In this document: positions 4,988 through 32,615 of the stretch, one piece after another
Layout of the letters: every line of letters starts with the position of its first letter
Numbering within the stretch: position 1 is the first letter of the stretch
The notes under the pieces: model-generated
The model's database searches: none
What the model was told of the DNA's origin: nothing
The model's input: only the letters and a program-made list of their open reading frames with translations
Assembly: GCF_026914185.1 (NCBI RefSeq)
Contig: NC_070558.1
Span: 8,069,501-8,133,500, forward strand
DNA: 64,000 bases
Origin: Puccinia triticina
Lineage: Eukaryota > Basidiomycota > Pucciniomycetes > Pucciniales > Pucciniaceae
Direction of reading: 5' to 3'
Made by a program: the position numbers and the translations under genes

Positions 4988-5300
4988 AACTTAAGGGTCT
5001 TGATTAATTGACTACCCTAAATTTGACTTCCGACGTCCAAACGTGGTTTACCTCGGGAGGACCGCTGCCCGACGTTGCGCCTGGGTCGCGCGGACCAAAA
5101 ATTGACACGCGCCCAATTTGGTAGTCGGAAATCAACAATGGAAATACCAGACAGTCGTCGGATTTACAATTTTTGCAAAAATGGCAAAAATACAAAAACA
5201 ATCATACATAACTCCTCCAAAATTTTACAGAGGGCAGAAAACCCTTGCAAGCGCACATGGTGATCTGCATGGCATTAGCACACCTCAGGAATTGTTAGCC
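4988..5300 (+). repeat. Dispersed repeat, copy A
   Basis: This segment, including TTGATTAATTGACTACCCTAAAT near its left edge and a TTTTGCAAAAATGGCAAAAA-like stretch, reappears inverted at about 32283-32615. The shared order of blocks over about 300 bp shows it is an interspersed repeat, probably a transposon end. No coding capacity is visible and the family is unknown. Confidence 0.6.
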
Positions 5301-5509
5301 CTAGAGATACAATAAGTATCCTAAGGACTGCAATAACTAAAAAAATAACAATAAATGTTAAAATATTATTACAGATTCAGCCTTCTCATTATAAATTAAG
5401 GGGGGTTAACCACTTGAAGTAACCCTTTATTCCTACTCCTTCTGGTACTTTACTACGAAAGGAGTAGCATAGAGAGCGCTGTAAATAAAACCCTTACATA
5501 AAAAAATAA
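5301..5509. other. AT-rich spacer before the 12.6-kb TIR unit
   Basis: No gene or clear repeat is seen; the sequence is AT-rich. It ends at the 8-bp target-site duplication TACATAAA (5510-5517). Confidence 0.3.
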
Positions 5510-5627
5510 TACATAAAGGGGGTTACTAAACGTACCCGGGTATTTCCGCGTTTGTACCCGGTTTTTGCGTACCCCCTTTTCCGCGTACATACCCGGTTTT
5601 TTTCTATTCATTTCTACGCGACGCAAA

Positions 5628-17986: not shown

Positions 17987-18099
17987 GTTGCGTAGAAATG
18001 AGTAGAAAAAAACCGGGTACACACGCGGAAAAGGGGGTACGCAAAAACCGGGTACAAACGCGGAAATACCCGGGTACGTTTAGTAACCCCCTACATAAA

Positions 18100-18700
18100 T
18101 ATAAAACACATAAAATTATATTAAATGAGAATTTACCTTTACACTGTGAAAATAGAGCACGGGTGAGAAGTATCCATTGTATTATTTATGTTACTTTTCA
18201 CACATAGCTTTTACACGTGACAATTGGTTATAAAATGTCAAGTGTCAAAGCAAGGGAAGTTAAGTAACATAGTATAAGCTAGAGGCTACAGCGGCTGCAC
18301 CACTGCAGGTTATAGCACAAGTCCCACCTCCAGGTATGATCCCACATCAGGTTCTAAAGTCCTGTGTTTAATCCCTCCATCTAGCCAGACTTCACAGCTC
18401 ACATGGCCAATTCAACCCTCAAATCCCTCACAAAAACTTCCCATTCTTCTTTGAGACAGCTCCTTGGATTCCCTCTCTGTGCAAGATTACCCTCTCCACC
18501 TGACTCATCACCTGAATCAAACTCAACAAAAGTCAAAATTTCCTATCTTATCCTGTGTATGTATTTTATCTTTTCAAATTGGTCTCTGGAAACTTCCTCC
18601 TATCATCAAATCTCTGATATAGGAATTCTTTTGGCCCAGCCATGCATGAAATGAGTCCTTAAAGTATGTATTAGCAGCTTATTTCTCATGAGGTGCTGAG
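18100..18700. other. Intergenic, no gene recognised
   Basis: Only short frames are seen, without domains. The sequence is AT-rich and flanks the right TSD of the 12.6-kb unit. Confidence 0.3.
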
Positions 18701-18739
18701 ATATGTCTATTTCAAATTCACATAAATTTTGGCTGGTTT

Positions 18740-19010
18740 GCATAAAATTCCACTTGAGCCGGGTGCTAATTGGATCAGCGAATTCCTGTGGAGAGGGGTA
18801 TTGTTCCTCATGGAGATGGTGGTGATGAGAGTGGGTGGGTTGGGTGGTACGTTTCTGGACGCTGAGGAAGATGAGACGCATCAGGCGACGGTCCCTGAAC
18901 CGGCGAGGACTTCCATTGGCTTCCAGGAAACGGGTCATGGTCTGGACGCGCTCAACGATGCGCTCGAAGGCCTCCTCTACCCGCCGGTCTTGTTCAATTG
19001 GCAGGTAAAA
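18740..19010 (-). pseudogene. Fragment of an unrecognised protein-coding sequence
   Basis: On the minus strand the frame encodes an Arg/Glu-rich helical stretch (around VEEAFERIVERVQTMTRFLEAN) followed by a basic segment RRFRDRRLMRLIFL. The composition looks coding, but there is no start, no domain and no clear splice context. It is probably an exon fragment of a decayed gene. It may belong with the larger decayed sequence at 19290-20420. Confidence 0.25.
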
Positions 19011-19177
19011 CGGGGCGGGGAAATGTCAGGTTGTGGTTCTGCTACTCTTAGCTTTATCATACCTGCTGGTGTCACTCATTCATGACCTGTCATTTACAGG
19101 TCTTACCCTCAATTAGGGATCTTCATGTGACACCAGTGGATGTTCATTCACCCACCTGCAGCCATTCATATCCAAGC

Positions 19178-19244
19178 GTCCTTAGTACAGTGGTTAGTAC
19201 ACTTGACATGGATATAAGAGACATGGGTTCAACTCCCATAGGAC
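19178..19244 (+). repeat. tRNA-derived (SINE-like) sequence
   Basis: It contains an A-box-like TTAGTACAGTGGTTAGTAC and a B-box GGGTTCAACTCCC. The T-arm is perfect (ATGGG / CCCAT, 7-nt loop), the D-stem is GTAC / GTAC, and the outer five acceptor pairs form. The anticodon arm is degraded and there is no U33. A diverged copy lies at 49577-49648, and both are followed by an AT-rich tail containing CATAATATTTTATGGA. This looks like the head of a SINE rather than a functional tRNA. Confidence 0.55.
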
Positions 19245-19289
19245 ACATAATATTTTATGGAGTTTCACAGGAAATCCCTCTTCTTGTCG

Positions 19290-20420
19290 GCCCGATCTAG
19301 ATCGTCCTCGAGGAACAGGACGCCTATCATCTCCAGGCCGATGTCACTGGGCATGATTTTCTTAAACATGATTGGCGGGTATTGTCGGAGATGATCAGTA
19401 GATTGGACCAGCGCGTGTCTAGGTGGAAGGGGCGCTCGAGGCCGGCATGGCCAGTCCATAGGGTGGAGAGGAGGATCAGTTGCCAGGACCGGGATTGGAG
19501 GATGTCGGGGCCGAGCCGGGCCAGCGCGCCGTCGATAAGCTCGAGGACCAGGCCGAAGTCGACAGCCAGTGCAGGGGGAGAGAGCAGAGAGCAGGAGAGG
19601 GTTCAGGATGGCCTGGAGGCCGACCTCCTGGCGCCACATGTGGCAATGGGCCTTGAGCCGGCCGCCGCACAAGGTGTTGTCGCGCTCAGTCAGGCTCAGG
19701 TTGAATTGAGCATCTATCCGACCACATATTTGGCCTATAAGAGAATCAGTCCGGTCCTCCAAAGCAACGGCTTGCAGGGCTGGCTTGGGAGCAGCTCGTG
19801 AAACTCCGATGAGCTCATGGGCTGGTTGGGTCCGTCGGGCTGTGTGCGATGGATGAGCTGACCCTTGGACCAACAAGATAATTTGATCGAGCGGAGCGAC
19901 TCGTGCTGTGAGACTTGAGGACGCTTGATGAGCTCCTTGGGGCAATTGGTGGAGCGCAGAAGAGTTGAGAGGATATACGGATCCTTGAGCTCGTCCAAGC
20001 TGTCATGAACAGGCTGTCCCAGCAGCCATTTGACCGGAATCAACAATGGGGGAGCTCGTTGGATCGGCAGGCCAAATGCCTTCTCCCGTTCCTGGATCCA
20101 AAGAAGTTATTGTGAGCTACACACTCCCCAAAACATGAAAGTACTCTTACTTCTGTTGCCCTTGGTTGTTGGGCGATGTCGGACTGGGTGGCACGCTTGA
20201 GGTGGACAAACTGGGCCGAGAGCTCGCGGACGATCGAGCTGAGCCGGTGGCGGTTGAGCGAGCAGAACTTGAGCAGCCGGGTCTCTCAGCAGTCCGGGGA
20301 CTCTTCAGAGCCGGACCAGTAGGCGATCTGGTTCTTGATCTTTCCTGGGACAATGGTCCAGTTGGAAGCGGAGAGGACACTGCCAGCATATTTGGCTGGG
20401 ATGAAGTCATCCCAGTTTAA
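19290..20420 (-). pseudogene. Decayed coding sequence of unknown function
   Basis: On the minus strand several adjacent segments look protein-coding but change frame and meet stops. One reads ...KFCSLNRHRLSSIVREL... (near 20200-20290), one ...LLIPVKWLLGQPVHDSLDEL... (near 19970-20050), and one ...MFKKIMPSDIGLEMIG... (near 19300-19370). I recognise no family. The order suggests one long gene broken by frameshifts, in-frame stops and a fold-back element at its 5' side. Introns could explain some breaks, but no consistent GT-AG set was found. Confidence 0.35.
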
Positions 20421-20594
20421 CTGGGATGCACTCAACCAATTTAAAATGGGTTGATCTTGACCAATGAAATACAAATCCAAGGGGGGGTACCTTGGATTTA
20501 TATTTCATCAGTTGAGATCAACCAAGTTTAAATTGATTGATTTCATCCCAGTTTAACTGGGATAACCTCAACCCAGCCAATTATGCTGGCAGTG
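20378..20594. mobile_element. Fold-back MITE with CACTG ends and a 3-bp TSD
   Basis: Two arms of about 100 bp (20378-20481 and 20491-20594) are inverted copies of each other at roughly 80% identity around a 9-bp centre. The ends read CACTGCCAGCATA / TATGCTGGCAGTG. GGA flanks both sides, compatible with a 3-bp target-site duplication. CACT(A/G) ends with 3-bp duplications are the hallmark of CACTA/EnSpm elements. No coding sequence is present. Confidence 0.6.
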
Positions 20595-21469
20595 GGAAGA
20601 AGCAGGTTTTGGAGGCCTGGGTGAATGATTGAGGGGGAAGCCTGATCCGAAAAAATGACCGGATATTCCATGACCCTGGACAGGATATTCCGCAGGAACA
20701 AGTGTTGATGTTAGCACATGGAGTGGGAGACGGTCCGCCAGGCAACAGTGTTGCGGTGATGGCGAGTGCAAGATTGAAGTAATACATACCCAGGGCCGCA
20801 CGGATTGTATCTGACTCCTGAGGCAGTGGCATGTTGTTGTTGCCTAGCATGTGGACAAGCCAAGGAGTTGGCTACACAGCAGTTGCACGGATTCAGGTTT
20901 TGCCCATCGAAACTGCCGTCAAAGACAAAACACCCGCCTGATTGACCGCCCACCTGTCGGCCTCCGGTCAGCCGTCAAACTGCCAGCCAAATTAACAGCC
21001 AAACGGCCGGCACTTGACTTCAGGCAAGTTTAACATAACTTGCCTGGGGTTGGTTTGCCGACAAACGCGCTTGTGCTGGCCTCCAGGCTAACCCAAAAAA
21101 AACAGCAGAGGGGGCCAAGACAAAATCCGCCCATCAGAGGGACACATCACCCTCGGCCCTCGCCCATCCACCCGCCTCATTTTCTCTAAGTCCGCTCATC
21201 GGATCACCGCCACCCTCCATCTCCCCACCCTCATCAACCCACATCCTCAGATGTGTCCCTCTGCGCCTGCCTCCTCCTTGCCCGGCCCACACCCCATCCA
21301 CAGCACGCCCACCTCCACATCACATCCTCCATCTATCAAGCTCCACACCTCGCTCGGCTGCTTCCAAGCCTTGTTCCCCCGACTATCGCTCTTCCTCAAC
21401 ACCCACGATGGATCAGGTGGTCTGGATTACGCGCCCAATTGGAAGCGATCATCTTGGTTTCCTTGCCCC

Positions 21470-21840
21470 CCAAAACGCAGGAGACCATCCAGCAATTGAC
21501 GTTCGAAAGCATGATGGAAAATGTGCATCTGACGCGTGTTCATAACCCGCAAACGTTAATCCACACAATCCACTACTGTCTGTCCATATTCCTGGGCAGA
21601 CATAGCATGCCAAAGGAAGGATCTCCGGCGCGGCCAATCAAATTGATAATATTGGACTCAATCGGGGTGATCTTCCGGGCGGATCTGGAGCAGTTGAAGC
21701 AGAGCAGTGCAAAGTTCAGGATGACGGAGCGAGCGGCGGAGATGAACCAAGTGGCGGATGGGCTGAAGGTGCTTGCGGACCAATACCGGCTGACCGTCGT
21801 GGTCGTCAACCAAGTCTCAGATGTCATGGCCCCTCCCTCT
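21470..21840 (+). pseudogene. RAD51-paralog (RAD57/XRCC3-like) ATPase fragment
   Basis: The frame encodes the C-terminal half of a RecA-fold core. After NVHLTRVHNPQTLIHTI comes a Walker B strand (IKLIILDSIGVIFR). Then follow a helix MTERAAEMNQVADGLKVLA and the L2-proximal strand VVVVNQVSDVM. RAD51 paralogs mediate RAD51 loading in homologous recombination. The Walker A P-loop is not found upstream in any frame, and the sequence after NQVSDVM becomes Ser/Pro-rich. It is probably a gene fragment left by transposon activity, or a gene with introns I could not resolve. Confidence 0.5.
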
Positions 21841-22299
21841 TTCTCCTCTGAGCTTGCCCTTCCCCGTCCACACAATACGATTGTCGGTCATCCTAGCCAG
21901 CCGGGCAGCTTGGGAAGCGCTGCAATCCTTTTTCCCCTTTTCCCACTCTCTCCGGCATAACTCCTTCCACCTCTCTTCCCTATTCCGTTTCTCTCCTCTC
22001 TAACAGTAGTTTGTTGTCCAAAAAAACCCCAATCAAAGAACAAAAAAAAATACCAATGTGCAGAAACAAGCACAGAGAGCCTGGTCAGCAGCAATGAGCA
22101 GCAATCAAGGCTGGAACGACCCGTTTCGGGGCTGGGGGGAGTAATTGCCGAGCAAAGTGCCGGCGGTTTGATGTTGAAACGTGGTCAAACGAGGGGCTTG
22201 GGTTTGACGGCAGATTGCCGGATCCCGCCCTTTCTTTTGCCAGCGTGTTGTCCATTTGCGCATCGCCGGGCGTGCTGGCAAATTTGTCGGTCCACTTGA

Positions 22300-22851
22300 C
22301 GGTTGACGGGAGGCCGGCATGCGAACGGTCAACGCTGGCTGGGGGGGAACCGTCAAATTGACGGCCGAAATTTGGCCGGATTGGCGGCGATGCGGAACCG
22401 CTGTGTAGTGATTTGGCATGCGTGGCTATATAAGGAGGTCATGTCCCCTCCCATTGGTCCCCAGGGCGTCCTCTGCCGCTGTACTTCCAGCGTGTGGTTT
22501 GCCCTCAAGCCCCTCCGCTGTTGCACTTGCACAGTTTGAGGGGCTAAAGAGTGGGCCCCCCACTGGTCTGTAGCCTTAGCTGCGGGCAGGGGGCCTTCAA
22601 GTCCATCCCTTTTGACCCGTGCACTTGACACAGGCTGGGGGGTGAGCCTGTGGACACAGCATTTTGCTGATGCTGGGGGGCTAGGTTGCATTTTTTTTAT
22701 CATTTTTTAGGGGAGATTTGTGTTGTTTTGCATGAGTTTTTGTAAAAGGGGAAACCCTTGATTTTTTTTTACTCTCATTTTATGTATTTCTAGGGGGAAC
22801 CCATGATTTTTTTTTGTGAGTTGGAAAAAACTGTGTCTTTAATAAACTTGG
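22300..22851 (+). repeat. LTR-like remnant
   Basis: It has a TATA box at 22427-22434 followed by GAGG, a CCTCAAGCCCCTCCGCTG block, T-rich stretches and AATAAA near 22840. The same blocks occur inverted at 5628-6180. The right edge coincides with the outer end of the tyrosine-recombinase retrotransposon, which therefore probably inserted here. The left edge is not resolved. Confidence 0.4.
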
Positions 22852-23101
22852 ATCCATTCTGCGCACGGTACTAAACTTCTAGTACTCGTGTCAAGGAAAA
22901 TGTGTATAAACTGTAAAGACGGTAATCTCTACGCTTTAAAACATATTCCTCTAGGGTGTATAGGAAAACCATAGGTTTTCTCAGTCCACCCGAGTCTGGG
23001 GAAGAATTGAGTTTGTGTTTTTATCAACTCAATTGGGCTAGAAGTGTATCGGCAGATTGTGCTGTTTGTGAACGTAAATGAGGAGGGAAGCAAGGCAACA
23101 C
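22852..23101 (-). repeat. Split direct repeat B2
   Basis: It matches 23430-23679 over 250 bp with very few substitutions. It forms the 3' outer end of the tyrosine-recombinase element and is separated from A2 by 66 bp. Confidence 0.85.
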
Positions 23102-23167
23102 TCCACGTTCACCTCTGAAAGATTCCCCCTCTCTCAGAATCCCCATAATAGTAGGGTGGGTGGGACA

Positions 23168-23431
23168 GATTTTGAAAAGTCTTTATTTGACGTCTTGTTG
23201 TGCAAATAAAGTCGTAGATGGTGAAAACGCAACTGGTGGAGCTAGGAGTGTGGATGAGGTATGAAGCAGGCCGTGCCGACTTCATATAACTTCCACCCGC
23301 TCATAGTCTGCGGCAGACGCTCGGACCTCTATTTCTTGACTGACCCCCCGGTCTGCCCCAGAACAGTCCGCTTTCCCTCAGCGCTCATGGACTTAGGTAC
23401 TCCCACAGTTCCTAGTTCTCATACCATCAAT
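23168..23431 (-). repeat. Split direct repeat A2
   Basis: It matches 30897-31160 over 264 bp. It abuts B1 with a 2-bp overlap, exactly as expected for the joined ends of a circular intermediate. Confidence 0.85.
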
Positions 23432-23679
23432 CCATTCTACGCGCGGTACTAAACTTCTAGTACTCGTGTCAAGGAAAATGTGTATAAACTGTAAAGACGG
23501 TAATCTCTACGCTTTCAAACATATTCCTCTAGGGTGTATAGGAAAACCATAGGTTTTCTCAGTCCACCCGAGTCTAGGGAAGAATTGAGTTTGTGTTTTT
23601 ATCAACTCAATTGGGCTAGAAGTGTATCGGCAGATTGTGCTGTTTGTGAACGTAAATGAGGAGGGAAGCAAGGCAACAC
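23430..23679 (-). repeat. Split direct repeat B1
   Basis: It matches 22852-23101. It lies directly downstream of the recombinase gene on the minus strand. Confidence 0.85.
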
Positions 23680-23752
23680 CTAAAAACTCAGGTAAGAATT
23701 TCTGAATTGAGCCTGAGCCCTTGGCGCGAACCCCTAAACTCAATTTACAAAT

Positions 23753-24877
23753 TTACACACGGAAACATCTATCATACACTAAACCAACCCCCCCTAGAAC
23801 CGGTTTCCTAGGCTGTTCCCAAAAGGAATTAAGATGAGCAATTAGCTTCTTTGTGTCTTTTAACTTGTGTTTGCGGTACGTGCGGATGTATAGTTTGTAG
23901 CACGAAGACTTCCAACGGCCTAAATCGCAAATTTCTTCCTTTGCGACCGCCAGCGCGTTGCGTAAAGAAGCTCCTCCTACCCGGAAGGAGTGACCTAATA
24001 ATCCCTCAAAGCCGCCTTTCCGCAGTACTTCTTGTACCCTGCGTAGGGTGATACATCTTGTCAGGTGATGGCGTGTTCCTCCTTTGTAGTAGCCAAAAAG
24101 AGAAGTCACAGAACCCTTCGCCTCTATGATACGCCGTTGTACGGCCTCAACCGGGCAAAGCATGTTGTTGAGACTGTGAAGGACTAGTTTCTGTGGTTTA
24201 CCGGGGGACGCGGTTTTTGCGTTCCTAACTGTTAGGTATACGTTCCGTCCGACGGCGGTTTGCATCTATGTCACGTCGGACGTGAGAATGGAGTATTCCA
24301 TATTCAGAGGTCCCCGGCAGTTTTGGTAAGTAACCTCCCCGATTCAAGCCATTCCCCAGAAAGCGACTATGATCAGGTCCCTAATTGCAGTATCGCTACC
24401 CGGCCTGGTTGCCAGCGCATTACACAACCACACCATATGATTGAGCATTATCGCCGGTTTTATTGGCCTCAGGGGCATCGCAGCGTCGATTTTTGCAGAT
24501 GCCTTTAAGATATATTTGATTCGTGTTTCTGAGACGGCAGGGAATTTCTTCTTGTGAAAAGCATGCCAGGCTTTCAAGCCATAGACGTAGTTCTTGACCG
24601 AGGATGAGTTAATCTTCTTTACATTATTTGTATAAAGGCTCCAACCTGCCCAGAAACAAAAGTCTTCTGCGTCGTCTGATGATATTGGAAGTGTGAAGTC
24701 GTCGGATGTTGTCTGACTCTTGAAAACTAAAAATTTCTTCACTGCACAATTGTAACCCACCAGCGTTGACATTGCCCAGTGCGATAATATGTGTTTGTCT
24801 ATTTTCCTTAAAACTACCGGAACACTCCCATTCTTTAAGAAAGCGCTAAGTTTTGATTCCCATTTGGGGTCATTCAT
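23753..24877 (-). pseudogene. Tyrosine recombinase of the YR retrotransposon, two in-frame stops
   Basis: The N-terminal part (24877-24347) carries a core-binding helical region. The catalytic part follows, with the H-x-x-R motif in GHSFRVGG and a Tyr in the YIRTY segment near the C-terminus. The TGA at 24344-24346 falls exactly where the first catalytic Arg of the usual A-R-x-G-E motif is expected (context GMA-stop-IGEV). A TAG follows at 24266-24268. The rest stays in a single frame, so the gene died by point mutation rather than deletion. The enzyme would have recombined circular cDNA into the genome. Confidence 0.82.
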
Positions 24878-25062
24878 TGCAGGGGCTCACTCAGGCTAAA
24901 ATCTAGTCGTAAAGGATAAAGCAATGATTCAAAAATCTCAAGAAAAGAAAGGGCTACGAGTGGTTGAAAAATAGAAAGGATCCCAATTGTCTACAAAACG
25001 ATGGAAAAAAGGAAAAAGGGACCGGGAAATATCTACAAGTCCCTCACAGGCTTAGCTCAAGA

Positions 25063-26718
25063 TATATAGTGGTACAAAATGTTGTCTAAATCTTCTGGGA
25101 TCTCAAACAAACACCTGTTAGCTTCTCGATGTGAACCCTTGATTCACCTTGACAACGCGTCTGCCGTGTTGTCTTTGGATTTGACTCTCATAGCTGTCAA
25201 GTCAATCTGTTCTATCATCAGGATGGATTGAATTATTTTCCATTCGTTGTTCACTGCAGTATCGCCTGATTTCTTGTTTTCAATTACGGCCAGGGTTGTA
25301 TTGTTGTCTGTCCATACTATCAGATTCAAACCCTTCTTGATCCGTTGTGCCTTTTTCAACATTAGGAGACCTAGGCGTATTGCAACAGTTTCCAACCATG
25401 CGATGTTCCGGCGATCTCCATCAAACTGGTCGAAAAGCTTCAGTTGTGACCATAGTTTGCCGATCTTGATCCCGATTCCAAAACTAGTACTTGCATCTCC
25501 TACCCACTCGATATTCACTGGTTGTCTAACCGGAATTAATCTAGTACGTTTGAAAGCCAACAGATTGCTATGCCATACTTCCATATAATCTTCTAGCACC
25601 TCTTTTGGAGCCAACCTCTTTGCAAACTTATGCCGCCAACCCACCATCCATTTGTATAGACTATTCAAATATGCCCTTAGTTGAGGTAAAATGAATGCCA
25701 CATGGTTTAAACGTCCCGCTAGGATTTCAATGTCGTTAAACAAAAAAATTTGTACTTCAATAAGCATTATTGCTACTTGATCAATTCATTCCTTCAACTT
25801 TGTTTCTGGAAACCGGACTGTTTTATCTGATCCGTTCCATATAAAGCCTATAAATTTTTGTTCCGTCGAGAATTCTGAGCATTTATCTTGGTTTGTCTGA
25901 ACAACTAAACGTGTTGAAAATGCGACCTCATCTCTCATCTCCGTTTTTGATGTCGTACTCTTCACAAAAAGATTATCATTGACCCATCGGAAAACCTTTA
26001 CTAAATCAAATCTATCTTCCATTATTTCTTTCCACGCGTCTGCTGGTCTTCCAAATGAACCGCACCCTGCGACACCCCCAAACGTGATCCTTGTGTCCAA
26101 ATATAAATTTTCATTCAGATCTTGTACTACCAAAAACGGCCATTGCGACGGGTGTGTCGGAATTTGCCTATACGCCTTTTCCCAATCAAAAAGCGCTAAA
26201 AGTACAGGCCCCTGTAAATTCGTAAAAAACCGCGCCACCGTTTTAAAATCATCCCAAGTCGTTTGGAAATCGTCGGAATTCACAAATGAATTAACTGATG
26301 GGATGTTCGGATTGTTGCGTGGAAAGGACAAATCATTTGTCGGTCTCACTGATCCATCATTGTTTACCACCGCGCCTAATGGAGAAGATCTGAAAAATTT
26401 GAACTTTTTATTCAATTCTTCTCTCGAAAATGGTCCAAACATCCTTCTCGCTTTTTCTTCTTTTTCAAAAGAGTTTGCTATTTTCTCTGCCGCTAGTTCC
26501 GCAGATTTGTGATTCGCCGGGACATACCACGGTAACTGTCCCAAATTATGGACCGGTATTCCTTGATGAAAACCGTTCTTGAACCTCATAATCACATCGT
26601 GATAAATCTCTTCTAAACTTGCTGCTTTCAAAGCATATTCCCAAAATGAAATATTCATTTCGCACTCAACTTTATCGGGCCAACATGGTGTTATTTTCTT
26701 CGTTGCTAATTCCGACAA
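25063..26718 (-). pseudogene. Reverse transcriptase-RNase H of the YR retrotransposon
   Basis: The RT part (26718-25789) contains PTNDLSF, ALFDWEKAYRQIP and the active-site region FRWVNDNLFVK, in which the first Asp of the usual V-D-D is Asn. The RNase H part (25767-25147) has the expected acidic residues in GDAST, WLETVA, WTDNNT and KSKDNTADALSR. A single TGA at 25786-25788 separates the two in an otherwise continuous frame. A further TGA at 25144-25146 precedes a plausible short tail. The protein would copy element RNA in the DIRS manner. Confidence 0.82.
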
Positions 26719-27875
26719 GAGACACCTTTAAAAACAAATTTGGCGAAAAAAGACACGAGATAGTAAGAAAAAAGGAGCAACAATTTATCCCCGACACATT
26801 TACAAAGGAAAAACAAAGACATAAGAACTTTTCCAATGAGGAAATTAGAATATAAAAAAAATTCCAAGAAAACTACCAAGACAAAAACCATCTCATAGTT
26901 TAATCACAATTCCTTACTTGTTAGAATTACTACCGGAGCCCGATCCACTAGCTGGAGGGTTAGAGTTCAATCTTCTCTTGTTATAACCTTCAATCCAATG
27001 AGAACCTTTGTATCCCAACCTCGCTCTCTTTTTTGAGTCTTGGCCAGATTGATTATTGTTAAAGCCATGTTGAGGTTTCATAGACTGATTAATTTGATTC
27101 CCTTGCTTAACTTGATTAGCGTGTTGAGCTTGTGATGACGGTACGTTATGAAAATTATTTGCTTGTAAATTTAAACAAGCATTTCGAGTCATCAGGTCAA
27201 TATGACAATGACCATAGTTCGGAGCGTAATAATTTTTGTCCCAATTCAATTCGCCGAAGTTTTGACAAGTATTGTAGCAATTCTCAACGATATCATCTCT
27301 GATTTTAGAAATATCAGGGATTTTAAGGACTCCATTCACGTTCACTCGGCTAGAGAATGTTATTTGACGCATGATCATATCATATCTAAAGGGTCAGCCT
27401 AAATGCACTCCAAAAAAATCCCAAAAGCACTCCAAAAGTGAGTGTATGGAGTGTGCACTCCAATGATTGTTGGAGTACAGACTAGAGCTTACTCCAAGTC
27501 AATTGGAGTGCAGAACCGGGGACTCAAGACTCTTTGGAGTGCACCACAAAGAACTCCAGTGGCCAGGAAATGTAATGAGTGCCCATGAGTCTCACTCCAT
27601 CAGATTGGAGTGCATTCCCCCAGCACTCCATTCCTGATATTTCTCCTCCTCAAAAGGGGAGTGCAGTACTGTGCACTCCAGCCAGAGCTGGAGTGCCTAC
27701 AACTTCAACTGGGCTATGTACAAACACACCCCACTTGATCCTCCTGATATCCATGACCGGTACAGACCGGCATTGAGCGGATTAAAATCTCCTCTCAATG
27801 ACCAGTCTGTACTGGACCGCCGGTCATTGAGGGAAATCACAGAAATCACACCTCTTGATGACCGGTCTGTGCCGG

Positions 27876-28247
27876 CAACGGTGAAACAAATACAATACAT
27901 GTATCTGTATCTGCCTGTATTTGTATCTGTTTTGCACCCAATACTATTTATTTGTATTGTATTCAAAGACCAATACTATACAAATGTATTCAAAATTTGG
28001 TATCTTGTTGCAAATACAGCCCAATACAAGATACTGTATTTTTACGTTTTTTGATAGTTTTTCTGTATACAGTCCACAGTGGCCAAAAACAAGAAAATCA
28101 AGTTTTAATAATTTATTGATACAATACTATGGTATTGTATCTTCAGGCAGATACAATACATTTGTATTTACAATTTTGTATTCTTCAACAGATACAATAC
28201 ACAAGTATCTGAAGATACTGTATTGTATAGTATCTGTTTCACCGTTG
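27876..28247. mobile_element. 372-bp MITE nested in the satellite-bearing TIR element
   Basis: The ends read CAACGGTGAAACA(A/G)ATAC in inverted orientation. GTGCCGG is repeated on both sides (27869-27875 and 28248-28254), giving at least a 7-bp target-site duplication. The interior is AT-rich with repeated ATACAATAC / GTATTGTAT. The end motif CAACGGTG is also the left end of the MITE at 59725-60117. Confidence 0.7.
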
Positions 28248-28254
28248 GTGCCGG

Positions 28255-29420
28255 TCATCAAGGGGAGTAACATCTCCTCTCAATGACCGGTCTGTGCCGG
28301 TCACCGAGGGGACTCACACCTCTCAATGACCGGCGCGGACCGGTCACACCTCCCGATGACCGGCACAGACCGGTCATTGAGGGGACTCACACCTCGATAA
28401 TCGGTCACACCGGTCATTGAGGCTAATAACACCTCCTCTCAATGACCGGTCATCACCGGTCATCGAGGTGAGTCACATCTCTCGATGACCGGTCAGACCG
28501 GCCATCGAGGTGAGTCACATCTCTCGATGACCGGTCTGTGCCGGTCATTGAGGGGAGTAACATCTCCTCTCAATGACCGGTCATCAAGAGTAGCACCTCC
28601 CCTCGATGACTGGTACACACCGGTCATTGAGAGGTGTTATCACCCTGGATGACTGGTCTGACCGGTCATCGAGAAATGTGACTCACCTCGATGACCGGAG
28701 ATGACCGGTCATCGGGAGGTGTGAGTCCCCTCAATGACCGGTCTGACCGATCATCAAGAGGTGTGAGTCCTCTCGATGATCAGTGGTGACCGGTCATCAA
28801 GAGGTGTGAGTCCTCTTGATTACCGGTCTGTGCCGGTCATCGGGAGGTGTGACTGATGACCGGTCCGCGCCGGTCATCGAGAGGTGGGAGTCCCCTCGAT
28901 GACCGGTAAAGACCGGTCATCAAGAGTAGCACCTCCCCTCGTTGACTGGTACACACCGGTCATTGAGAGGTGTTATCACCCTGGATGACTGGTCTGACCG
29001 GTCATTGAGAAATGTGACTCACCTCGATGACCGGAGATGACCGGTCATCGAGAGGTGTGAGTCCCCTCGATGACCGGTCTGACCAATCATCGAGAGGTGT
29101 GAGTCCTCTCGATGATTGGTGGTGACCGGTCATTGAGAGGTGTGAGTCCTCTCGATGACCAGTCTGTGCCGGTCATTGGGAGGTGTGACTGATGACCGGT
29201 CTTCGCCGGTCATTGAGAGGTGGGAGTCCCCTCAATGACCGGTAAAGACCGGTCATTGAGAGTAGCACCTCCCCTTGTTGACCGGTACACACCGGTCATT
29301 GAGAGGTGTGACTGATGACCGGTCCGCGCCGGTCATCGAGAGGTATGAGTCCTCTGGTTGACCGGTTGTGTGAGTCCCCTCAATGACCGGTCCAGACCGG
29401 TCATCAAGGGGTGTGATTGC
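28255..29420. repeat. Array of TGACCGGTCA-centred palindromic units with 336-bp higher-order period
   Basis: Several dozen units of about 35-50 bp alternate (C/T)TC(A/G)ATGACCGGTC with its complement and spacers such as GAGGTGTGAGTCC. The string AGAGTAGCACCTCCCCT recurs at 28587, 28923 and 29259, exactly 336 bp apart, so blocks of units were duplicated together. There is no coding capacity. Similar units before the nested MITE (about 27750-27868) belong to the same array. Confidence 0.85.
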
Positions 29421-30896
29421 TGTGGGCACTCCAAAAAAAGGAGACTTGGAGTGCACCCCAATGCACTCCATTTGGTATTTGCTAGCTGGAGTGCAAAGCC
29501 AAAATCCTTCACTGAAAAGGTGGAGTGCTTGGGCTTGCACTCCATTTTTTTGGAGTGCATCTAGCTGCACTCCCCTATTTTGGTCAATTTTGGAGTACCC
29601 AGTTGTGTACTCCAAGAAACATGGAGTGCCCATCTGGGGACTCCATGTTTTGGGAGTACAAAATCAAGGCACTCCAACTTTTTTGGAGTGCTGGCCCCCC
29701 AAAGCCAAAAATGTGGAGTGTATGAAGTAAAAGTTTGGAGTGCATTTAGGCTGACCCTATCTAAAACCAATCATAAAGCACCTAGTGTCCGTTATCTTGT
29801 CTACGTTCTTTTTATGCTCCAAAAGTTTGTCGGTGAATTTCTTGTTGTTGTACACGTTAATTAACGTCCAAACAAAATCCCAATGATTGAAAGTCCAGTG
29901 AGCATGAGTCATAAGCCACTCTGGAACAAACGGGTAACCTCTATAGTTTGTGACCGTCGATGATTCTTCATTCTTTGGTCTCTTCTCAACATGCCAAGAA
30001 ATTGCGTTCACACACCAAATCTTGTTGAAAATGGTCAACGGAAGAGGGCCGCGAAGCTTCTTGATGTTCTTGTCCAAGAATGGGGCGTACCCAACGTTAT
30101 CGTGTGAAGCTCCTATGCCTTCAGCGTAATCCAAACCACCGTAATTAGCCAATCCTCCATCATGATTGGTAGGTGCTGGATTGGTTAATTTTGGATTTTT
30201 TGGCCCCAATTCGCGTATAGCTTTCAGAAAGACATTTGCCATTCCTGCATTTCCGGCTACTTGAGCGGCTGAAGCCTGCTCTAACAATATGGATACTGGA
30301 TTAAATGGGGTCTTATCCACACCTATTTAACATAATATGTTAACCATCTTGTTTACAATACCAAGTGAAATGATTATAGTAGTGCTCTATCTTTACCTGG
30401 TACGGATTTCATAAACTCTATGAAATCTGGTTCAACTACTTCTTGATTCTCAATTCCTCCTGTGTTATTGTCCTCCTTGTCAAACACTAAAGGATCGTCT
30501 GCACGGTTTTCAATGGGTATGTTTCCCGGATTCTCAACGGGTACGTTCCCCGGAACAACTCCAGTCTCTGCATCAAGTGAAGTCATCAAAAAGACAATCA
30601 TAGATTTAGTTCCCTTATCCCTGGAGATTTCTCACAGTTTTTTGGTAAAAATTCCCAATTATCTGGAGCCATGCTCGACAGTTTGATGGTACTCCACTCA
30701 CCTGCTACACCTCTCTCTTCACTGACTATTGGCAATGGGACCAAAGCTCAATGTACCTTGTTCGCGTCTCTTCCGGTTGACGCTGCCTTCGACTTTTTTG
30801 CTGCGGCGGATGAAGCCCTGGTAACGTTTGGTTGGTCGCCCATCTTTCTCGGAAATTATATACAAAGCTTCTGGATTGTTATGATGTTTATGGAAA

Positions 30897-31160
30897 GATT
30901 TTGAAAAGTCTTTATTTGACGTCTTGTTGTGCAAATAAAGTCGTAGATGGTGAAAACGCGACTGGTGGAGCTAGGAGTGTGGATGAGGTATGAAGCAGGC
31001 CGTGCCGACTTCATATAACTTCCACTTGCTCATAGTCTGCGGCAGACGCTTGGACCTCTATTTCTTGACTGACCCCCCGGTCTGCCCCAGAACAGTCCGC
31101 TTTCCCTTAGCGCTCATGGACTTAGGTACTCTCACAGTTCCTAGTTCTCGTACCATCAAT
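30897..31160 (-). repeat. Split direct repeat A1
   Basis: It matches 23168-23431. It forms the 5' outer end of the tyrosine-recombinase element; the sequence right of 31160 is unrelated to A2's neighbour. Confidence 0.85.
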
Positions 31161-31740
31161 AAATTGCCCACAGCCAAGGAGGCTTACATGCCAAAATTTG
31201 GCCAATTCCCATAACCAAAAAGGCTCTGTGTAGCGTGGGCAGTGTCCCCTCCAATATTTAAAGGGCCTTTGGAGCCTCTGGAATTAATCCCCCAGACTAT
31301 TCACCCACCCATAACCTGTAAGTTACTTGTGAATATTCTCCTCCTGCTTCCAGAGCAGTGTATCCCTTATAAAATACCACCTAGCACATCAAACTACTAG
31401 AATTTACCCTTAAAATTCAGCAACTTCCCTTATAGAGCAATTTTTAGTGTAACTTCTTTAAAAATAATTGCAGTAAGACTCCAGCCTCTGTCAAGAATCC
31501 AATCAGCTTAAGCTCTTACCAGTTATTTTTTACGCCCAAAACCCCCTGTTATTAATAATTATACATTATTGAAATTATACAATAATAAAGTCTTTGTCCT
31601 CTTACATAAGAGAGAAAAACCCTTGTAGTGGCTAATTACCACTTAACAAGCTTGGTATTATATTACCAGTGTTTTATTTCAGGACATTTATAGTGCAAGG
31701 GCCTAGAAACCCTAATTAAATTAAAATTACGGATTTTTGA
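31161..31740. other. AT-rich segment, possible LTR remnant
   Basis: There is no gene. ATATTTAAAGGGCCTTTGG and CCTTATAAAATACC resemble core promoter sequences of LTRs, but no second copy is present in the window. Confidence 0.25.
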
Positions 31741-31764: not shown

Positions 31765-32300
31765 TCAGGAATGGGGTGTGCTACTGTGCGCGCATTTTGG
31801 CCCGAGCTTAACAAAGCCTCACTGTGAGAGCCCCGAAGGGTTGGAGGTCGCACTTTCTGCGAGGCGCTTCGCGCCGCGCCCCCGCCAGGCGAGGGACTTG
31901 TGCTAAGTTTGATTTTGGCCGGTGTTCTCCTACTAAGGAACACCACTGAAACTATAGCCCCGGTGAACCAAAGGGTCTCAAAATTTTACGGTGCACAGAT
32001 TAAGCTCTGAAAACAATATGATGAGCTGCATGGCATTAGTACACCCCAGTAATGGGGTTTGCTACTGTGTGCCCATTTTGGCCAGTATCCTACTAAGGAA
32101 CACCACCAAAACCATAGCCACGATGAACCAAAGGGTGCCAAAATTTTACAGTGCCCAGATTAAGCTCTGAGAACAAAATTCCTGGCTGCATGCCCTTAGT
32201 ACACTCCAGGAATGGGTTTGGCTAAGGTTTTGGTGGTGTTCCTTAGTGGGACACTGGCCAAAAGGTGTGCACAGTAGCACACCCCATTCCTGAGCTGTGC
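31765..32300. repeat. Tandem and inverted duplication of a repeat unit
   Basis: Two direct blocks (about 31768-32043 and 32048-32207) share GAATGGGG(T)TTGCTACTGTG..., CTACTAAGGAACACCACC, AACCAAAGGGT and CAGATTAAGCTCTGA. A third partial copy (about 32208-32292) is inverted. The family is unknown and no coding sequence is present. Confidence 0.6.
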
Positions 32301-32615
32301 TAGTTCCATGCAGCTCACCATGTGCTTTTGAGAGGGTTTTCTGCCCTCTGTAAAATTTTGGCATGGCTTGGGTGCCGCAGGGAGGAGTTCTGTTTTTTTT
32401 TTACATTTTTGCCATTTTTGCAAAAATTGTAAATCTGACTACTGTTTGGTATTTCCATTGTCAATTTCTGACTACCAAATTCTGTGCGGGTTAATTTTTG
32501 GTCCGCGTGACCCGGGCGCAACGTCGGGTAGCAGTCCTCCCGACGTAAACTGCGTTTGGTAGTTGGAAGTCGAATTTAGGGTAGTTGATTAATCAAGGCC
32601 CTATCTTAAATATTC
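32283..32615 (-). repeat. Dispersed repeat, copy B (inverted)
   Basis: It is the inverted relative of 4988-5300. Both contain the blocks CTACCCTAAAT, GGTCCGCG(T/C)G and the AAAATTTTAC-GAGGG stretch in the same relative order. Confidence 0.6.

What the first reader, a model, noticed from the sequence alone, without database searches (positions are those of the whole stretch)
22852..31160. Complete tyrosine-recombinase retrotransposon with A1...B1-A2-B2 split direct repeats
Paired repeats of identical lengths (264 and 250 bp) are arranged exactly as in Ngaro/PAT elements. B1 and A2 abut with a 2-bp overlap that equals the join of the outer ends. RT, RNase H and a tyrosine recombinase lie between. 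Such elements are often missed by LTR-based annotation, so this is easily overlooked.
Basis: partly seen in the sequence, partly recalled or inferred. Interest (0 to 1): 0.75.

Follow-up and report, generated by a model that had tools for sequence, protein, structure and literature searches.

The report
Dead Ngaro retrotransposon, nested with others
This is a decayed copy of a known kind of jumping gene (a Ngaro retrotransposon, which pastes itself in with a recombinase) in what looks like a rust fungus, butted against a second kind of jumping gene and broken by a third; it is largely ordinary.

Summary
On the minus strand, 31160 to 22852 holds A1 - gag - RT - RNase H - tyrosine recombinase (YR) - B1A2 - B2. 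A1/A2 differ at 8 of 269 positions, B1/B2 at 4 of 250, and the B1/A2 overlap "AT" is the dinucleotide at both outer ends. Fold models of an intact relative's proteins match CaMV/Ty3 RTs and Cre. This is the Ngaro layout; fungal Ngaro group 1, from Puccinia and Melampsora, is published (PMC3783388). So it is a new member of a known kind, in a Puccinia-like genome with 128 RT matches, window included. It is not "complete": gag holds a 2.37-kb hAT-like insert, RT motif C lost an Asp, a stop separates RT from RNase H, and YR has two stops, one at a conserved Arg. New details: the 10 left and 26 right ends read fit a host/element switch at one bond, A|T (not all are informative), and the element abuts a Helitron-like end at that bond, the only exact match to that junction in the genome. 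Novelty is low; the single-bond switch is a modest, testable lead.

The parts
22852..31160 (-). Ngaro element, outer limits (AT at each end; element proper 22853-31159 if the switch lies at A|T)
30896..31160 (-). A1 repeat (265 bp, 5' end of element)
   Evidence: 8 differences of 269 aligned positions to A2
30374..30631 (-). upstream ORF (85 aa), possibly a first gag exon joined by a short intron (inference)
   Evidence: splice reading by eye only
29758..30326 (-). gag-like ORF, part before the insert
   Evidence: the related protein is one uninterrupted 361-aa ORF in a relative copy
27391..29757 (-). hAT-like non-autonomous insert in gag, 2367 bp, terminal inverted repeats matching at 24 of the first 26 bases, 8-bp duplication TTTAGATA
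   Evidence: end region found at 40 scored places (of 292 candidates, window included) at 98-100% identity
28241..29421 (.). tandem/palindromic array of CCGGTCAT-type units inside the insert
   Evidence: families D1-D4, D7, D8
26914..27390 (-). gag-like ORF, part after the insert
25786..26727 (-). reverse transcriptase ORF (motifs FDWEKAY, GGVAGCGSFG, but VNDN for VDDN), ended by an in-frame stop
   Evidence: fold of an intact relative
25144..25785 (-). RNase H ORF (GDAST, WLET, WTDN, DNTADALSR), same frame as RT
   Evidence: motifs read by eye
23753..24886 (-). tyrosine recombinase pseudogene, two in-frame stops (one at the position of Arg181 of a relative)
   Evidence: Cre-like fold of an intact relative
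23430..23679 (-). B1 repeat (250 bp)
23167..23431 (-). A2 repeat (265 bp), overlaps B1 by AT at 23430-23431 (internal copy of the circle junction)
22852..23101 (-). B2 repeat (250 bp, 3' end of element)
   Evidence: 98.4% to B1
18279..22852 (-). neighbouring Helitron-like element (5' TCCAAGTTTATT, 3' CTAG, A before its 5' end), shares the A|T bond with the Ngaro's B2 end

Best explanation
It is a decayed copy of a Ngaro retrotransposon of the Pucciniomycotina lineage (Ngaro group 1). Likely life cycle: an RNA running from A1 to B2 is copied by RT/RNase H. The internal B1A2 block carries the junction of the two outer ends and lets a full circular DNA be rebuilt. The YR then recombines the circle junction (GAATGGA|TTGATGG) with a host site, most often A|T, giving an insertion without target-site duplication. 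Shown here: the repeat anatomy, the order of domains, the recurrence of the B1/A2/B2 arrangement in other copies, the nearly constant junction against variable outer bases, and the lesions that kill this copy. Inferred from the published model for DIRS/Ngaro: the RNA, the circle and the catalysis. This copy later took a hAT-like insert in gag and point lesions in RT and YR. It lies end to end with a Helitron-like element.
For: Repeat layout and AT overlap. One-strand gag-RT-RH-YR order. An intact relative's RT-RH is modelled at mean pLDDT 88 and matches CaMV and Ty3 RT first (E 4e-16 and 4e-15; query TM-scores only 0.45 and 0.30 over the full two-domain chain). Its YR is modelled at mean pLDDT 92 and matches Cre first (E 2e-9, query TM 0.63). 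In 43 YR sequences His299, Arg302 and Tyr333 are invariant and Arg181 is at 90% or more. The genome gives 128 RT and 150 YR matches, window included. RT relatives are named from P. graminis, P. striiformis, P. triticina and P. coronata. In the RT tree the window falls in a clade of 15 copies of this genome (support 0.99), inside a group with three P. graminis proteins and one metagenome protein (0.918). The internal junction reads GGATTG in 8 of 9 copies where it can be read, while the outer bases vary. Published Ngaro definition and Puccinia group.
Against: No Pfam model reached its curated cut-off for the 7 window ORFs or the 3 proteins of an intact relative. The window YR gives only Phage_int_SAM_4 at E 0.069, the relative's RT only RVT_1 at E 0.0008, and the relative's YR nothing. 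PMC3783388 reports a similar weakness of the RT and RNase H profiles, but says the YR profiles do detect DIRS and Ngaro YR. No DIRS, PAT or animal Ngaro reference was at hand for a deep tree. No empty allele of this very site was found, because the two flanks are two different repeats.
Confidence: 0.93

Rival explanations
1. A PAT- or DIRS1-type element of the DIRS group, integrating the same way but carrying a methyltransferase domain (PAT) or inverted terminal repeats (DIRS1).
For: PAT elements share the split direct repeats (passages of PMC4157794). A begins ATT; NTT, most often ATT, starts and ends 23 of the 28 DIRS1-like elements annotated in PMC3266345 (passages).
Against: The repeats are direct, not inverted. 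The internal block lies downstream of YR, as in Ngaro. No methyltransferase family was hit in the ORFs scanned (weak sensitivity). PMC3783388 finds DIRS only in early-branching fungi and Ngaro in Pucciniomycotina.
Confidence: 0.04
2. Single-strand exchange: YR joins only one strand of a circle to the host at the A|T bond and replication settles the rest (as recalled for integron cassettes), rather than the two staggered exchanges 6-8 bp apart that recombinases such as Cre make.
For: Left ends vary at position 1 (A 7, C 2, T 1) and show the element's T at position 2 in 10 of 10. Right ends show the element's A at position 1 in 26 of 26 and vary at position 2 (T 17, C 8, A 1). Fisher p = 0.017 and 0.039 (bases, tallied again). 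Three copies with both ends read and a non-AT target (on C7, C10 and the A-B remnant on C6, paired by position) agree. YR also matches the integron integrase 2a3v at rank 31.
Against: Few copies, not all independent. Of the base next to position 1 at left ends, 5 of 10 are G, the element's own base, and one left end (L071) shares TGG there. Two right ends (L004, L051) differ at position 2 but match at 3-4, two (L007, L066) match GGATTG throughout and say nothing. This could be target preference or a mixed zone. Some right ends could be a B1 whose A2 was lost. Biased mismatch repair would look the same. The fold match to Cre is stronger than to the integron integrase.
Confidence: 0.12
3. The element was assembled by recombination between unrelated repeats, so that the A/B arrangement is accidental.
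For: The two flanks are different repeats.
Against: The B1/B2 pairs and the B1|A junction recur in other copies. The flank mismatch is explained by the Helitron-like end lying at the junction: the right-hand repeat ends at that point in 4 of 4 other copies fetched, and the left-hand repeat continues, in 4 of 4 others, with the sequence found up to 18274 on the far side of the Helitron-like element.
Confidence: 0.01

Closest known systems
Ngaro group 1 of Pucciniomycotina (PMC3783388; [quoted passage not shown]
   Same: A-pol-B-A-B repeats, RT, RNase H and YR without methyltransferase, host group, high copy number, many subfamilies
   Different: I could not compare with the RepBase sequences themselves; this copy is coding-dead and lies in its own branch, about 83% RT identity to its three nearest copies
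Cafeteria burkhardae Ngaros (PMC8547959)
   Same: A1-[ORFs]-B1A2B2, gag/RT-RH/YR; solo AB repeats occur there and one A-B remnant was seen here (C6:7909871-7910468)
   Different: Two of their types favour virophage elements; no such preference was tested here
DIRS1-like elements (PMC3266345)
   Same: Internal circle junction and integration without target-site duplication; published junction is 3 bp, termini often ATT
   Different: Inverted terminal repeats there, direct split repeats here; junction identity here is AT

Membership tests
Ngaro | Split direct repeats A1-[ORFs]-B1A2-B2 | tested here: met
   B1/B2 pairs and B1|A junctions recur in other copies
Ngaro | Internal repeats downstream of YR | tested here: met
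   YR frame ends at 23753, B1 begins at 23679 on the minus strand
Ngaro | RT with RNase H | tested here: met
   motifs; fold match of an intact relative to CaMV and Ty3 RT; dead in this copy
Ngaro | Tyrosine recombinase (R, HxxR, Y; Cre-like fold) | tested here: met
   on an intact relative; this copy has a stop at the Arg position
Ngaro | No methyltransferase domain | tested here: inconclusive
   no such Pfam hit in 7 window ORFs and 3 relative proteins, but Pfam is weak on these proteins
Ngaro | RT/YR phylogeny with Ngaro references | tested here: inconclusive
   only rust and unnamed metagenome relatives available; the RT tree nests the window among Puccinia sequences
Ngaro | No target-site duplication | tested here: met
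   nothing beyond the junction dinucleotide is shared by the two flanks; no true empty allele seen
PAT | Methyltransferase domain with split direct repeats | tested here: inconclusive
   split direct repeats met; no methyltransferase hit, at weak sensitivity
DIRS1 | Inverted terminal repeats with internal complementary regions | tested here: not met
   the repeats are direct
Complete, potentially mobile copy | Unbroken gag, RT-RH and YR frames | tested here: not met

The most novel reading that the evidence does not exclude
Ngaro integration in this lineage switches from host to element at a single phosphodiester bond (A|T) without a mixed overlap zone, as a one-strand (integron-like) exchange would leave.
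Probability: 0.12. Interest if true: 0.5.

Novelty: new member of a known kind. Interest (0 to 1): 0.2.

Why it matters
As a finding it mainly confirms that a chromosome-scale, Puccinia-like assembly holds many Ngaro copies whose ends can be read exactly. If the single-bond switch holds in a larger set, it would bear on how tyrosine-recombinase retrotransposons integrate. The passages read here treat that as a model (a short circle junction recombining with an identical genomic sequence). I saw no direct mapping of it in them; most subscription literature is not in the library searched.

Tried and rejected
Rejected: that RT motif C (VNDN) is a family trait. 28 of 30 copies and 105 of 120 database relatives read VDD, so it looks like decay of this copy.

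Rejected: that Ngaro ends and the ends of this Helitron-like family are regularly paired. The 28-base junction pattern has one exact match in the genome (this one) and 109 more with 1-3 mismatches; 100 of the 110 places are listed. Four of those have a single mismatch, in the Ngaro part; none of the four coincides with any of the 44 B matches, so they read as chance. All 100 listed places have A before the TCC (the pattern asks for that A but lets it mismatch). Other Helitron families were not tested. My hand estimate is about 0.003 such coincidences expected genome-wide (about 110 Helitron ends, 260 Ngaro boundaries, 10 million AT steps; assumed figures, made after seeing it). Which element came first cannot be told.

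Rejected: that the flank mismatch means a chimaera.

Led nowhere: Pfam on the window ORFs; solved-structure search by sequence with YR (0 matches); literature search for Ngaro with Puccinia triticina (0 papers) and for 'tyrosine recombinase retrotransposon' with Puccinia (0 papers). No deep tree with animal or DIRS references could be made. Rows dropped before the end counts: the same place seen in several loci, internal junctions (B1|A2), ends cut off by a locus edge, B matches that do not reach the end, and one pair (L063) whose B end was not readable.

Full report
Observation. One search finds 250-bp repeats at 22852-23101 and 23430-23679 and repeats of about 270 bp at 23163-23436 and 30892-31165. 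Aligned exactly, A1 (31160-30896, minus strand) and A2 (23431-23167) are 265 bp, with 8 differences over 269 aligned positions; B1 and B2 are 250 bp with 4 differences. B1 ends GAATGGAT and A2 begins ATTGATGG, sharing AT; the outer ends read CAATTT|ATTGATGG and GAATGGAT|CCAAG. The order A1 - genes - B1A2 - B2 holds on the minus strand, on which all the genes lie.

Host. The genome has 122.8 Mb in 18 contigs, and the named proteins among the best matches are from Puccinia graminis, P. striiformis, P. triticina and P. coronata. I infer a Puccinia rust; the species was not established.

Genes. In coding order there is a gag-like protein, RT, RNase H and YR. Pfam barely recognises the window ORFs (one weak hit, Phage_int_SAM_4, E 0.069, in YR), and RVT_1 appears below its cut-off in relatives. 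PMC3783388 (abstract, introduction, results and discussion read) reports that general RT and RNase H profiles are weak on these elements, although it says that the Pfam YR profile detects DIRS and Ngaro YR, which it did not do here. Fold models of an uninterrupted relative support the identities. RT-RH (590 aa, mean pLDDT 88) matches CaMV RT and Ty3 RT first in the PDB. YR (359 aa, mean pLDDT 92) matches Cre first. In 43 YR sequences H299, R302 and Y333 are invariant and R181 is at 90% or more. Naming these as the catalytic residues rests on recalled knowledge of tyrosine recombinases.

State of this copy. gag is split at 29757/27391 by a 2367-bp insert whose ends are inverted repeats (24 of the first 26 bases agree), flanked by TTTAGATA on both sides. 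Its end region is found at 40 scored places, window included, out of 292 candidates, at 98-100% identity; 8-bp duplications suggest hAT, an assignment by structure only. RT motif C reads VNDN; 28 of 30 genome copies and 105 of 120 database relatives read VDD. A stop separates RT from RNase H, where the relative has one 590-aa frame. YR contains one TGA and one TAG, the first at the position of the nearly invariant Arg181. As it stands the copy encodes none of its proteins whole.

Family. One search lists 128 RT matches and 150 YR matches in this genome (window included, one copy split into two RT matches; lower bounds by the tool's note). The three nearest RT copies are 83% identical at protein level. 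In a 63-sequence RT tree (30 loci of this genome, 22 named and 11 unnamed proteins) the window copy joins three others (support 0.949) inside a clade of 15 from this genome (0.99), grouped with three P. graminis proteins and one metagenome protein (0.918). A B1/B2 pair at the right spacing is seen in 10 of 30 YR loci, window included (60 bp, over 90% identity, 380-800 bp apart); some other loci may be too short or too old to show it. A-type sequence at both positions was matched outside the window in two copies, on C4 and C10. One remnant, C6:7909871-7910468, has A then B only, like the solo AB repeats reported for Cafeteria Ngaros (PMC8547959, section on Ngaros read).

How it works. The published model for DIRS1-like elements (PMC3266345, passages) has a short circle junction that recombines with an identical genomic sequence and makes no target-site duplication. 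The end sequences collected here fit and may refine it. The internal junction reads GGATTG in 8 of 9 copies where it could be read; the ninth, L051, reads GGATGA. The outer ends are less constant. Position 1 at 10 left ends is A 7, C 2, T 1, always followed by the element's T. At 26 right ends the base after GGA (GTA in one) is T 17, C 8, A 1. This fits a switch between those two bases at both ends; Fisher tests give p = 0.017 and 0.039. Against a clean switch: the base before position 1 is G, the element's base, at 5 of 10 left ends (and T precedes it at 8 of 10, which is not the element's base); two right ends differ at position 2 yet match at 3-4; two others match GGATTG throughout and are uninformative. 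So target preference or a small mixed zone is not excluded. That the outer bases vary while the internal junction hardly does supports the idea that the junction is re-made from the internal copy (inference). A recombinase with a 6-8 bp staggered exchange would be expected to leave mixed positions unless repair is biased, so one-strand exchange is possible; the sample is too small to decide.

Neighbourhood. The right-hand flank is a repeat whose end...AATAAACTTGGAT, stops at the same dinucleotide in 4 of 4 other copies fetched. Read on the minus strand it begins TCCAAGTTTATT and is preceded by A in all 100 places listed of 110. Its far end reads CTAG at 18279, 7 bases past a short hairpin that is no stronger than in shuffled sequence (52 of 200 shuffles fold at least as well). 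These are recalled Helitron hallmarks; no Helitron protein was found or sought. It carries a Rad51-like fragment and a tRNA-Pro. The left-hand flank is another repeat, which in 4 of 4 other copies fetched continues with sequence found at 18092-18274. So the Helitron-like element and the Ngaro together interrupt one repeat and share the A|T bond. This pairing has no second exact match in the genome.

Verdict. The single-bond switch at the ends is the one point worth following.

Noticed in passing
window 18279-22852: Helitron-like element abutting the Ngaro at one A|T bond, with a Rad51-like fragment (ORF 21190-21960, Pfam E 1e-5) and a tRNA-Pro (19176-19247); 110 genomic matches to the junction pattern with up to 3 mismatches.
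   Followed up: partly
window 27391-29757: hAT-like non-autonomous element with a long array of palindromic CCGGTCAT units; end region at 40 scored places with 98-100% identity, so probably recently active.
   Followed up: partly
window 5293-5517, 18092-18274, 31158-31310: One repeat lies in three pieces: a 12.6-kb insertion with an 8-bp overlap (5517/18092; seen against 3 of 4 other copies) and the Helitron-like element plus Ngaro (18274/31158; 4 of 4).
   Followed up: partly
window 31928-32360: Direct (84%) and inverted (81%) repeats of about 140 bp close to the element's 5' flank.
   Followed up: no
G000 C6:7909871-7910468 (L008, L077): Solo A-B remnant of a related Ngaro, as expected from recombination between A1 and A2.
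   Followed up: partly
B1/A2 junctions of L005, L048, L050, L052: Short inverted arms GTACC...GGTAC flank the junction with about 19-21 bases between; possible recombinase half-sites, by eye only. In the window the A2 arm reads GGTAT, and L061 and L066 lack the arms.
   Followed up: no
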